In this document: piece by piece, positions 17,651 to 20,373 of the stretch | How positions within the stretch are numbered: position 1 is the stretch's first letter | How the letters are laid out: every line of letters begins with the position of its first letter | NCBI GenBank assembly: GCA_020425605.1 | Contig: JAGQRH010000010.1 | Location: 59,392 to 123,391 of the forward strand | Source of the DNA: Planctomycetota bacterium | GTDB lineage: Bacteria > Planctomycetota > UBA8742 > UBA2392 | Direction of reading: 5' to 3' | Length of the DNA stretch: 64,000 nt | Notes under the pieces: generated by a model | What the model saw: only the letters and a program-made list of their open reading frames with translations | Told to the model about the DNA's origin: nothing | The model's database searches: none | Made by a program: the position numbers and the translations under genes

Positions 17651-18274
17651 TTAGCGATAGACGGCTGACTTCTCGGATACGCGGCGGATCTTGTGACCGC
17701 CCTTGAAGATCAACTCGTCGGTTTCCGTATCGATCAGTTCAAACGTGTAGAGGATCGTGTCGTCCTCATACTCGCCGTCGGTCATCGACAGGGTGCTGAA
17801 CTTTGCCTTCAGGAAGTAGTCAGCGCCAAGCTTGGTACGACGGCCGGTACGGTCCGTACGCTCGCCGGCTTCTTTCTCTTCTTTTTCAGCTGCCACCGCT
17901 TCCTGCACGTCGCTGTCACGCTGTGAAAAGCGCATCTCGTCGCGCGTGTAGCGATCCATCAGCTCAACCAGCAGGTCTTCCTGGAAGATCTGGCTGACTT
18001 CAGGAAAGCGCGTGTCGTTCTGCGGGCGGATGACCGCGATGATCGGCGCATCGCCGTACTTCGCGATGAAGCGCTTTGAAATCTTCTGCTTCTCCATCTG
18101 GTCGGCGATGGAATCCGTAACTTCAAGCAAGTCCGCCGAGTACGGGCCCGAGCTTTCCGGCCCTACCTCGTCGTCTTCAAGATCCTGGCGAGTGGACTGA
18201 CGGCAGCCGGTACCAACGCCGCTGGCCGCGGCAACAAACCCAAGCAACAGCAAAATGACCAAGAACCTGTGCAT
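17651..18274 (-). CDS. LpoB-like lipoprotein (penicillin-binding-protein activator family)
   Basis: A 207-residue protein with a signal sequence (MHRFLVILLLLGFVAAASGVGTGC). The core resembles LpoB: TDSIADQMEKQKISKRF, APIIAVIRPQNDTRFPEVSQIF, MRFSQRDS, ADYFLKAKFSTLS and YTFELIDTETDELIFKGGHKIRR. In enterobacteria LpoB is an outer-membrane lipoprotein that stimulates the bifunctional peptidoglycan synthase PBP1B; homologues elsewhere are mostly uncharacterised. A charged insert (about 125-150, EEKEEKEAGERTDRTGRRT) is unlike E. coli LpoB. The neighbouring TPR lipoprotein supports an envelope role. Confidence 0.75.
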   Translation of the reverse strand: MHRFLVILLLLGFVAAASGVGTGCRQSTRQDLEDDEVGPESSGPYSADLLEVTDSIADQMEKQKISKRFIAKYGDAPIIAVIRPQNDTRFPEVSQIFQEDLLVELMDRYTRDEMRFSQRDSDVQEAVAAEKEEKEAGERTDRTGRRTKLGADYFLKAKFSTLSMTDGEYEDDTILYTFELIDTETDELIFKGGHKIRRVSEKSAVYR

Positions 18275-18439
18275 CGACGTCTCCTGATATATTCGGCCCT
18301 AAGTGAGCGTCGGATAGGGTACCCCACGGGGCGAATCTGGCAAGCCGCACCAGCGGTTGACAGTCACCCCGCCAGAGTCGACAGTGACCGCAACCGGCAG
18401 CGTCAGCAGCACTTACCGCCGACAGACAAGCAGCCTCCC

Positions 18440-19495
18440 ATGGAACCGAACTTCCGCAAACTCGACACAGCCGAGATCACCGTGCCGGAAAGCGCCGAAG
18501 GTGAGCGCCTCGACCGGTTCCTTCATGCGCACTGGCCCGACTACTCCCGGACGCTGTTGGCAGGCCTCGTCCGAGATGGCCATGTCACGATTCAGGGCCT
18601 CGCACCAACCAAGGTAAAGCCGGCATTGAAACTGGAAACCGGCCAGGTCATCAAGATCGAGAAGCCCGCACTTGAGGAGGCCGAGCTAGAGGCCGAAGAT
18701 ATCCCGCTGGAAGTGCTTTTCGAAGACGACGCCATCATCGTGATCAACAAGCCGGCTGACCTGGCCGTACATCCGCCCAAGGCCGGGCGCGGCGGCACAC
18801 TCGCCAATGCTCTGCTGTTTCACTTTAAGAAGCTGAGCCGTCCGGACCCGATTCGGCCCGGAATCGTGCACCGCCTCGACGCCGACACCAGTGGTGTGAT
18901 CGTCTGCGCCAAGGACGACAGTGCGCACTTCAAGCTGGCCAAGCAGTTCGAGCAGCGCACGGTTAACAAAGAATATGTCGCCATCGTTCGCGGCCGCATG
19001 AAACAGACGACGGGAACCATAGACATGCCGATCGGCCGTCACCCGGACCACTATGAAATGCAGCGGGTACACCCGGAGGGCAAGCCGGCGGTCACCGACT
19101 GGGAAGTGCTGGAGGCATTCAAGCGCTTCACGTTGTTGAGGCTCAAGCCGCGCAGCGGGCGCACGCACCAGTTGCGGGTGCACCTGGCTGCGATCAATCA
19201 CCCGATCGTCGGCGACCGACTCTATTCGCGCAAACCGCCGCTCACCCGCAGCGAAGTCATGGGCACAGAGCCCGCACCCGGCGAGCCGCCGCTCATTGCC
19301 CGCCAGGCGCTGCATGCCGCAAAACTGGAGTTCGACCATCCGCACACGGGCGAACGCGTCCGCTTCGAGGCGCCGCTGCCTGAAGACATCCGTCGCGCGC
19401 TCGACGCCCTGCGCGAAGGCCCGCGCGCACCTGCACGGGAAGACGGGAAGGATTCGACCGCAGCGGCTGTTCCAGACGCGGAGGAAACACCGTGA
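18440..19495 (+). CDS. RluA-family RNA pseudouridine synthase
   Basis: A 351-residue enzyme with an N-terminal S4 domain (EGERLDRFLHAHWPDYSRTLL, here read as ERLDRFLHAHW and RTLLAGLVRDG) and the catalytic domain with HRLDADTSG (Asp147), YVAIVRGRM and the RNA-contact motif SGRTHQLRVHLAAINHP. It is closer to canonical RluD/RluC than the gene at 237. I start at ATG 18440; the frame stays open upstream to 18269 but that part overlaps the divergent LpoB-like gene and its promoter space. The stop TGA overlaps the GTG start of the next gene (GTGA), so the two are coupled. Confidence 0.92.
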   Translation: MEPNFRKLDTAEITVPESAEGERLDRFLHAHWPDYSRTLLAGLVRDGHVTIQGLAPTKVKPALKLETGQVIKIEKPALEEAELEAEDIPLEVLFEDDAIIVINKPADLAVHPPKAGRGGTLANALLFHFKKLSRPDPIRPGIVHRLDADTSGVIVCAKDDSAHFKLAKQFEQRTVNKEYVAIVRGRMKQTTGTIDMPIGRHPDHYEMQRVHPEGKPAVTDWEVLEAFKRFTLLRLKPRSGRTHQLRVHLAAINHPIVGDRLYSRKPPLTRSEVMGTEPAPGEPPLIARQALHAAKLEFDHPHTGERVRFEAPLPEDIRRALDALREGPRAPAREDGKDSTAAAVPDAEETP

Positions 19496-20022
19496 AGTAT
19501 TCTCTGCCCGCGTTCGCAATTCTATGCGCGCTGTTGTTCAGCGCTTGTCCGGCCGAACACCCGCCCGCGAACGTTCCGGGCGGCAAGGCGGCCGGCATGG
19601 TGATTGGCTCGACGTTCGACGGCGCGCCCCTGACCATCGGGAAGGGCGAGCTTGAAGGCAAAGCGGTGGTGATCACGTACTTTGCCACCTGGTGAGGCGC
19701 TTGTGCAAAAGAGGCGCCCGTGCTGGCGTCGCTGAAGGCTGAGTACGAATCCAAGGGCGTCTACTTCATCTCGCTCACGATTGAGCCCAATGATGATGCC
19801 TCTGCTGTAGCCAGCTGGCTCAAACGCGCGGGCGCCGAGAGCCTGAATACGGCGCGGGCTTCAGACGGCGTGAAGGACCAGATGATCCGCATGGGCGGCG
19901 CCGAGCCCGGTGCCATTCCGGCGAACGTAATGATCTCCGCCGGCGGCGAAGTCACACGCTCACTGGTTGCGCCCTTCAAGCATGCCGATCTGGAAAGCGC
20001 CGTGGCCGCACTGGCCAACTAG
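19492..20022 (+). CDS. TlpA-like thiol-disulfide oxidoreductase lipoprotein, probable selenoprotein (UxxC)
   Basis: Read through an in-frame TGA at 19693-19695, this is a 176-residue thioredoxin-fold lipoprotein. It has a signal with lipobox FSAC (Cys19), then VVITYFATW, the TGA (position 68), GAC and KEAPVLASLKAEY. Family members have FATWCGPCxxEAP, so the TGA sits exactly at the first redox Cys and gives Trp-Sec-Gly-Ala-Cys. The frame stays open and protein-like on both sides, including the cis-Pro strand IPANVMISAGG. The start is GTG 19492, overlapping the RluA stop. The role would be reduction of disulfides or peroxides in the periplasm. The alternative is a TGC-to-TGA nonsense mutation. 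Confidence 0.72.
19713..19730 (+). promoter_or_regulatory. Candidate bacterial SECIS hairpin downstream of the UGA
   Basis: GGCGCC (19713-19718), loop CGTGCT, GGCGTC (19725-19730): a six-pair stem with one G-T pair. The apical loop begins 24 bases after the UGA and has G as its second base, which is compatible with published bacterial SECIS models. A competing 7-pair stem starts directly after the UGA (19696-19718) and uses the same GGCGCC. Seen by eye; no folding energy was computed. Confidence 0.4.
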
Positions 20023-20232: not shown

Positions 20233-20373
20233 ATGAAGAAGTTCGCTCTCGCGGTCGTCCTGATCGCCTTCGGCGCCCTGATGGTTGCCGGTTGCCCGTC
20301 TGACAACAAGGCCAGCAACACCGGCGGCAGCGGCAACGCCGCTCCGGCCAACGCCCCGGCCAACAACAAGTAG
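20233..20373 (+). CDS. 46-residue small lipoprotein
   Basis: ATG 20233 is preceded by AGGAG at a good distance. The product has a Lys-Lys N-terminus, a hydrophobic stretch (FALAVVLIAFGALMVAGC) with lipobox VAGC at Cys21, and a short tail of Asn, Gly, Ala and Pro (ASNTGGSGNAAPANAPANNK). It is followed directly by a hairpin and a strong terminator, so it is probably its own transcription unit and may be highly expressed. Such tiny lipoproteins recall entericidin-like or bacterial Lpp-type proteins, but no homology can be claimed. About 210 bases of leader with no other gene precede it. Confidence 0.72.
   Translation: MKKFALAVVLIAFGALMVAGCPSDNKASNTGGSGNAAPANAPANNK

What the first reader, a model, noticed from the sequence alone, without database searches (positions are those of the whole stretch)
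19492..20022. Probable selenocysteine in a TlpA-like lipoprotein (UxxC in place of CxxC)
A thioredoxin-fold lipoprotein gene is interrupted by a single TGA at 19693-19695. The codon falls at the first Cys of the WCxxC redox site (W-TGA-G-A-C), the frame stays open and family-like on both sides, and a SECIS-like hairpin lies at 19713-19730. A random nonsense mutation would hit this exact codon with low probability. UxxC thiol oxidoreductases are known in bacteria, but a membrane-anchored TlpA-like one coupled by GTGA overlap to an RluA pseudouridine synthase gene is, as far as I know, not described.
Basis: partly seen in the sequence, partly recalled or inferred. Interest (0 to 1): 0.88.

Follow-up and report, generated by a model that had tools for sequence, protein, structure and literature searches.

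The report
Selenium-dependent membrane thioredoxin of planctomycetes
A planctomycete gene whose reading frame holds a TGA "stop" at the exact place of the first active-site cysteine, the same in all six genomes of its genus that were searched, is predicted to make a membrane-anchored thioredoxin-like protein that likely carries selenium there; it is a new member of an already known kind of selenium protein.

Summary
In detail: a TlpA/ResA-like lipoprotein frame (19492-20022) has one in-frame TGA (19693-19695), at the first Cys of WCxxC. Selenocysteine is strongly supported. All six genus genomes searched (Planctomycetota MAGs) have the gene, all with TGA at this codon; the frame is open and constrained on both sides. 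The genome has tRNA-Sec, selA and selD (selD itself with a selenocysteine-type TGA). selB is missing from this 86%-complete assembly, as are an EF-Tu-like match and a close relative of selB's neighbour, but all five congeners have selB. The hairpin at 19713-19730 fits the published SECIS model; its five codons are identical in six of six, though its fold alone is weak evidence. A database Cys homologue (WCPPC) is sister to the six. In 41 genomes, 47 of 134 TlpA-like matches carry one TGA, none TAA/TAG; seven genomes without selB or strong tRNA-Sec have none. The RluA overlap is not conserved (2 of 6). UxxC Redoxin/TlpA-type selenoproteins are already tabulated, so this is a new member of a known kind. 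Less ordinary: in this family 34 of 74 TlpA-like matches carry TGA, all 34 at the first active-site Cys. No protein evidence exists here.

The parts
19492..20022 (+). Selenoprotein gene: TlpA/ResA-like thioredoxin-fold lipoprotein, GTG start to TAG stop, 176 residues with the TGA read through
19546..19548 (+). Predicted lipobox Cys19 (FSA-C here; MAA-C, LAA-C, LAA-C, LGA-C, VTA-C in the five relatives)
   Evidence: invariant in 6 of 6; lipobox rule recalled, no signal-peptide program run
19693..19695 (+). In-frame TGA, predicted selenocysteine 68, first residue of UxxC
   Evidence: TGA in 6 of 6 genus genomes
19702..19704 (+). Resolving Cys71 of the UGAC motif
   Evidence: invariant in 6 of 6; role inferred
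19713..19730 (+). Predicted SECIS hairpin, 6 bp stem, loop 19719-19724 (CGUGCU)
   Evidence: published constraints
19714..19728 (+). Five codons (GCG CCC GTG CTG GCG) identical to the base in all six genomes
19918..19920 (+). Conserved Pro143 of the I-P pair at the cis-Pro position expected of thioredoxin folds
   Evidence: invariant in 6 of 6; cis-Pro role recalled
18269..19495 (+). Upstream RluA-type pseudouridine synthase frame, overlaps the start by 4 bases; RluA-like motifs upstream in six of six genomes, overlap in 2 of 6
20233..20373 (+). Downstream small lipoprotein-like frame (46 aa), 204-210 bases after the selenoprotein stop in 6 of 6 genomes; not claimed as functionally linked

Best explanation
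The gene at 19492-20022 has TGA in place of the first Cys codon of a thioredoxin WCxxC site and most likely encodes a selenoprotein: an exported, predicted lipid-anchored TlpA/ResA-like thiol oxidoreductase with a predicted UGAC active site. Predicted working: SelA and SelD charge tRNA-Sec(UCA); SelB, bound to the hairpin 23 nt after the UGA, delivers it; Sec68 replaces Cys68. The protein would be exported by its lipoprotein signal and anchored through Cys19. Sec68 would attack disulfides outside the cytoplasmic membrane, Cys71 would resolve the selenenylsulfide, and a DsbD-type membrane protein could re-reduce it. Shown by sequence: TGA in 6 of 6 genus genomes, tRNA-Sec, selA and selD in this genome, selB in 5 of 5 congeners, base-level stem conservation, Redoxin family match. 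Inferred: actual Sec insertion, selB in this very species, membrane anchoring, direction of the redox reaction, DsbD as partner.
For: Six of six genus genomes carry the orthologue with TGA at the same codon, 52-68% amino-acid identity to the window's protein. Codon-position differences after the TGA are 0.35/0.28/0.55, and the closest pair (G002/G003) has pN 0.03 against pS 0.32 there. tRNA-Sec, 72.7 bits, anticodon tca; SelA 469 aa, PF03841 472 bits, one frame away from it; SelD 398 bits, itself with one TGA at GAG-TGA-GCK. SelB over cut-off in 5 of 5 congeners and 31 of 41 genomes. The stem codons +7 to +11 are identical in 5 of 5 fourfold columns, against 3 of 26 elsewhere (Fisher p 3.3e-4; longest-run permutation p 0.008). 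Cys homologue P0001 (WCPPC, 49% identity, 90% of the query) is sister to the six Sec proteins (clade 100/99; Sec group 95/73). 47 of 134 TlpA-like matches in 39 genomes carry one TGA, none TAA or TAG (hand count). The catalytic codon is TGA in 15 of 30 fetched loci and TGC or TGT in the other 15. In the family search 34 of 74 matches carry one TGA (hand count), and in 34 of 34 it stands at the first Cys of the site. Genomes with neither selB over cut-off nor a tRNA-Sec match under 1e-10: 0 of 7 have a TGA match, against 24 of the 32 others with a match (p 4e-4, grouped after seeing the data). AF2 model pLDDT 92.8; best PDB matches are 3or5, a thiol:disulfide interchange protein, and ResA. A DsbD-type protein is encoded.
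Against: No selB in the window's own assembly. The hairpin alone is modest: random synonymous recoding reaches the same energy in 3% of 300 draws for this gene and 8-16% for the relatives; in G005 it is only 4 bp, -4.5. In the minimum-energy folds only G001 forms this hairpin; in the window's gene a competing hairpin using the same left arm is preferred. There are no compensatory changes, so no covariation support. The published preferred loop pattern is only partly met (its N1-N2 pair would be C-C). bSECISearch was not run. No expression or protein data.
Confidence: 0.93

Rival explanations
1. Nonsense mutation or sequencing error: the gene is a decaying or miscalled Cys-type TlpA homologue.
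For: MAG sequence; the TGA differs from TGC/TGT by one base; selB not found in this assembly.
Against: Same TGA in 6 of 6 genomes (five are separately titled MAGs); frame open and constrained after the TGA; no TAA or TAG in 134 matches.
Confidence: 0.02
2. UGA is read through here with another amino acid (Cys or Trp by a suppressor tRNA), not selenocysteine.
For: Cys would also restore CxxC function; no peptide data.
Against: The UCA-anticodon tRNA found is of the tRNA-Sec family, with selA one frame away and selD on another contig; the neighbouring RluA frame ends on TGA, so TGA is still a stop elsewhere; TGA-bearing TlpA-like genes track selB/tRNA-Sec across genomes. Not all tRNAs of the genome were scanned.
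Confidence: 0.02
3. Two gene products: a 67-residue truncated peptide and a separate 100-aa protein starting at GTG 19720, as gene callers print it.
For: Eleven database rows of 99-102 aa (P0002-P0012) have the form of this tail, among them P0009, an NCBI 'hypothetical protein'.
Against: The split falls inside the active site; codons between TGA and GTG (GACAKEAP) are nearly invariant in the six; GTG 19720 lies in the predicted SECIS loop; the 100-aa piece lacks the half of the fold with the active site.
Confidence: 0.02
4. Same selenoprotein, different chemistry: Sec68 works mainly as a peroxidase (Prx-like) site rather than as a disulfide reductase.
For: Best Pfam match is Redoxin, next AhpC-TSA; the 2008 marine survey filed UxxC proteins with a weak pfam08534 match as Prx-like 3 (passage).
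Against: UxxC with a second Cys and best PDB matches to thiol:disulfide oxidoreductases (3or5, ResA) fit a disulfide reductase better; no assay.
Confidence: 0.25

Closest known systems
Redoxin family selenoprotein (PF08534, UxxC) of the prokaryotic selenoproteome tables; 'Prx-like 3' in the GOS survey
   Same: Same Pfam family as best match, same UxxC motif
   Different: Representative sequences of those tables were not available, so direct kinship was not tested; the word lipoprotein does not occur in the main text of the 2026 review
Thiol-disulfide isomerase-like selenoprotein (cd02966, UxxC) and UGC-containing TlpA selenoprotein
   Same: TlpA/ResA-like domain with Sec in the active site
   Different: The second type has the motif UGC; the NCBIfam model WAxxUGC_long scores only 26.3 bits here (cut-off 300)
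ResA / TlpA / DsbE thiol:disulfide oxidoreductases (Cys forms)
   Same: Fold and WCxxC position
   Different: Predicted Sec instead of the first Cys; scores below the curated cut-offs of the named subfamilies (ResA 42 of 170 bits, TlpA 34.9 of 230)
Etrx2, exposed lipoprotein thioredoxin of Streptococcus pneumoniae (2yp6, 4hqz)
   Same: Lipoprotein with a TlpA-like fold (titles)
   Different: Cys form (recalled), distant (18-19% identity)

Membership tests
Bacterial selenoprotein | In-frame TGA conserved at one codon in relatives | tested here: met
   6 of 6 genus genomes
Bacterial selenoprotein | Cys homologue with Cys at the Sec position | tested here: met
   P0001 (one sequence) and 15 TlpA-like loci with TGC/TGT
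Bacterial selenoprotein | SECIS: loop 3-9 nt, stem 4-16 bp, G in first two loop positions, spacing 16-37 nt, MFE at most -7.5 | tested here: met
   As an isolated stem-loop met in 5 of 6 genomes including the window (-8.5); G005 fails on energy (-4.5); bSECISearch itself not run
Bacterial selenoprotein | selA, selD, tRNA-Sec in the genome | tested here: met
Bacterial selenoprotein | selB in the genome | tested here: inconclusive
   Absent from this assembly, as are an EF-Tu-like match and a close relative of selB's FHA neighbour; present in 5 of 5 congeners
Bacterial selenoprotein | Selenium in the protein | not testable with these tools
   needs mass spectrometry or 75Se
Redoxin family (PF08534) | Score over the Pfam gathering cut-off | tested here: met
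   53.9 bits against 26.6, TGA read as Cys
ResA / TlpA subfamilies (NCBIfam) | Score over the curated cut-off | tested here: not met
   42 of 170 and 34.9 of 230 bits
WAxxUGC_long ResA-like selenoprotein (NF041054) | Score over the curated cut-off and UGC motif | tested here: not met
   26.3 of 300 bits; motif here is UGAC
Bacterial lipoprotein | Hydrophobic signal followed by lipobox Cys | tested here: inconclusive
   By eye only: Cys19 invariant in 6 of 6 after a hydrophobic stretch; no signal-peptide program was run, start codons chosen by eye

The most novel reading that the evidence does not exclude
This planctomycete family has moved much of its extracytoplasmic thiol-redox system onto selenium: nearly half of its TlpA/ResA-like genes carry UGA at the attacking Cys, in every genome of the family searched, so a selenium-based envelope redox network, with this lipoprotein as one genus-specific branch, stands in for the usual all-cysteine one.
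Probability: 0.45. Interest if true: 0.6.

Novelty: new member of a known kind. Interest (0 to 1): 0.38.

Why it matters
The protein search found only 100-aa tails of this gene, so its active-site half is invisible in protein databases; the same likely holds for many TlpA-like genes of this phylum (not tested). It adds a predicted lipid-anchored UxxC member and points to a lineage where selenium use in envelope redox proteins can be studied as a system.

Tried and rejected
A scan of the viral collection found no relatives. The RluA coupling was tested and dropped: overlap of 4 bases only in G000 and G001; gaps of 72, 20 and 35 bases in G003, G005 and G004, and in G002 84 bases in the frame that holds the RluA C-terminus (its RluA reading changes frame) (start codons chosen by eye, G005's is unsure). 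A longer consensus hairpin from RNAalifold was dropped because G001 breaks it. Other WUGxC pattern hits in the own genome (8; control 2) were read in frame: 2 of 8 (this gene and L090) look like thioredoxin-fold genes; L086 is open on both sides (50 and 195 codons) but does not look like one; the other five are short on at least one side. The promoter scan found none and the terminator scan fewer than shuffles. Literature searches; passages (not whole papers) seen in PMC13188914, PMC9312934, PMC4807772, PMC2398784 and PMC1088965; the rest only as listing and start of abstract. The search with selenocysteine, TlpA and lipoprotein together gave 2 papers, seen only as listing and start of abstract, on other topics.

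Full report
Observation. The frame 19492-20022 (+) is interrupted once, by TGA at 19693-19695, between FATW and GAC. Read as Cys, the product is a 176-residue Redoxin/AhpC-TSA/Thioredoxin family protein with a hydrophobic start and a Cys at residue 19 that fits a lipobox (by eye). An AlphaFold2 model (49 sequences) has pLDDT 92.8, with residue 68 just before the long helix 69-88; the best PDB matches by sequence and by fold are 3or5, a Chlorobium thiol:disulfide interchange protein, and ResA entries.

Conservation of the TGA. A search of 41 genomes (own, 5 same genus, 10 same family, 25 further away in the phylum) with the read-through protein found strong matches (E below 1e-49) only in the six genomes of the genus, and each has exactly one stop, a TGA, at the same codon. 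A request for up to 100 genomes of the family returned 16, with the same six of the genus. Amino-acid identity to the window's protein is 52-68%. After the TGA, positions 1/2/3 of codons differ in 0.35/0.28/0.55 of pairwise comparisons; pN/pS is 0.52 on average with near-saturated pS (before the TGA 0.40), and pN 0.03 against pS 0.32 in the closest pair. So both halves are one constrained protein.

Machinery. The own genome (4.24 Mb, 164 contigs, 86% complete) has a tRNA-Sec, anticodon tca; of the four best Rfam matches ARAGORN calls this one Sec and the others Leu, Ser, Ser. selA lies on the same contig C73 with one frame between. selD scores 398 bits and its own active site is a TGA, followed by a 7-bp hairpin with loop GGU 27 nt on. 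selB was not found: the five matches are all under the cut-off; three were read and look like IF2, LepA and TypA (names recalled), two were not read. An EF-Tu-like match of about 400 aa, listed for G002, G003 and G004, is also missing, and so is a close relative of the FHA-domain neighbour of selB in G001 and G005 (best match 42% over 73 residues). I take this as an assembly gap. 5 of 5 congeners and 31 of 41 genomes have selB over the cut-off.

SECIS. Against the published model (loop 3-9, stem 4-16, G in the first two loop positions, spacing 16-37, MFE at most -7.5; PMC13188914, passage) it passes in 5 of 6 genomes; G005 has 4 bp and -4.5. Structure alone is weak evidence: synonymous recoding reaches the observed energy in 3% (window) to 16% (G005) of 300 draws each, and among the minimum-energy folds only G001 forms this hairpin, the window's gene preferring a rival one. 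The strong evidence is at the base level: the five codons GCG CCC GTG CTG GCG have no synonymous change in six genomes, 5 of 5 fourfold columns against 3 of 26 elsewhere (p 3.3e-4; the region was chosen after seeing it, and a permutation of the longest run gives p 0.008; leaving out G002, which is 93% identical to G003, 9 of 31 columns are identical and the longest run is still 5). There are no compensatory changes to test.

Sec/Cys exchange. A protein search (the 7998 candidates sharing most words scored) gave 90 matches; eleven (P0002-P0012) are 99-102 aa and align to the part after the TGA, as tails of this gene would; the DNA was seen only for the window's own (P0004) and G001's (P0009). 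One, P0001 (ENA), is full length with WCPPC. In a midpoint-rooted tree of 49 rows P0001 is sister to the six Sec proteins (clade 100/99, Sec group 95/73, the latter drawn open). In the wider sample, 47 of 134 matches carry one TGA and none TAA or TAG (hand count); among the 30 loci fetched from that search, the first catalytic codon is TGA in 15 and TGC or TGT in 15 (L036 also holds an unrelated chance WTGAxxC). In the family search 34 of 74 matches, in 16 of 16 genomes, carry one TGA (hand count), and each of the 34 has it at the first Cys of the site: 12 in loci and 22 fetched later. Seven genomes have neither selB over the cut-off nor a tRNA-Sec match better than 1e-10 (G018, G019, G021, G023, G028, G029, G036): 0 of 7 have a TGA match, against 24 of the other 32 with any match (p 4e-4; match level 0 of 15 against 47 of 119, p 1e-3; two genomes, G025 and G030, had no match; the grouping was made after seeing the data and genomes are not independent). 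G016 has selB but no strong tRNA-Sec match and three TGA matches; G027 has tRNA-Sec, no selB over cut-off, and one; the other eight of the 32 have matches but no TGA.

How it likely works. Sec68 as the attacking residue and Cys71 as resolver, outside the membrane, anchored by Cys19; re-reduction by a DsbD-type protein is possible, since the genome encodes one (C109, DsbD_TM 104.6 bits, with Thioredoxin_7 domains). Direction of the reaction, partner and anchoring are inferred.

The neighbourhood. RluA-type motifs lie upstream in all six genomes, but the 4-base overlap exists in two. The small lipoprotein downstream is also constant (204-210 bases after the stop in 6 of 6). I see no reason to read a functional coupling to RluA.

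Known or new. Reviews list UxxC Redoxin (PF08534), UxxC cd02966 thiol-disulfide isomerase-like, UGC TlpA and Prx-like UxxC selenoproteins (PMC13188914, passages; PMC9312934, passages; PMC2398784 'Prx-like 3', weak pfam08534 match, passage). Selenoproteins are also known in Planctomycetes (PMC4807772, passages; its supplementary list could not be opened here). This gene is therefore a new member of a known kind. The less ordinary fact is the density of UxxC among TlpA-like genes of this family, which I did not see stated in the listings of the searches or in the passages read.

Noticed in passing
L081:1396-2469 (-), G000:C82: selD of the same genome is itself a predicted selenoprotein (GAG-TGA-GCK) with a SECIS-like hairpin (7 bp, loop GGU, 27 nt after the TGA).
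   Followed up: partly
L090:1336-2466 (+), G000:C120: A second thioredoxin-fold selenoprotein candidate in the genome, Thioredoxin_7 type, FTAVW-TGA-GPCK, 376 residues, hairpin 17 nt after the TGA.
   Followed up: partly
table (16 family genomes); L095-L137: 34 of 74 TlpA-like matches in this planctomycete family carry a single TGA, all 34 at the first Cys of the active site, in 16 of 16 genomes; none has TAA or TAG.
   Followed up: partly
L134, L135 (G014:C11, G006:C25): Two of these carry GTT-TGA-GHC (residues) instead of ATW-TGA-GPC: the Trp before the predicted Sec is replaced by Thr.
   Followed up: no
L063, G005:C206: A molybdopterin oxidoreductase-like frame (named by eye) lies downstream of selB in G005.
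   Followed up: no
window 20233-20373: A 46-aa lipoprotein-like frame with a near-constant distance and sequence start (MKK[FL]ALAV) after the selenoprotein gene in all six genomes.
   Followed up: no
G016: A genome with selB and three TGA-bearing TlpA-like matches but no strong tRNA-Sec match; missing contig or a divergent tRNA-Sec.
   Followed up: no
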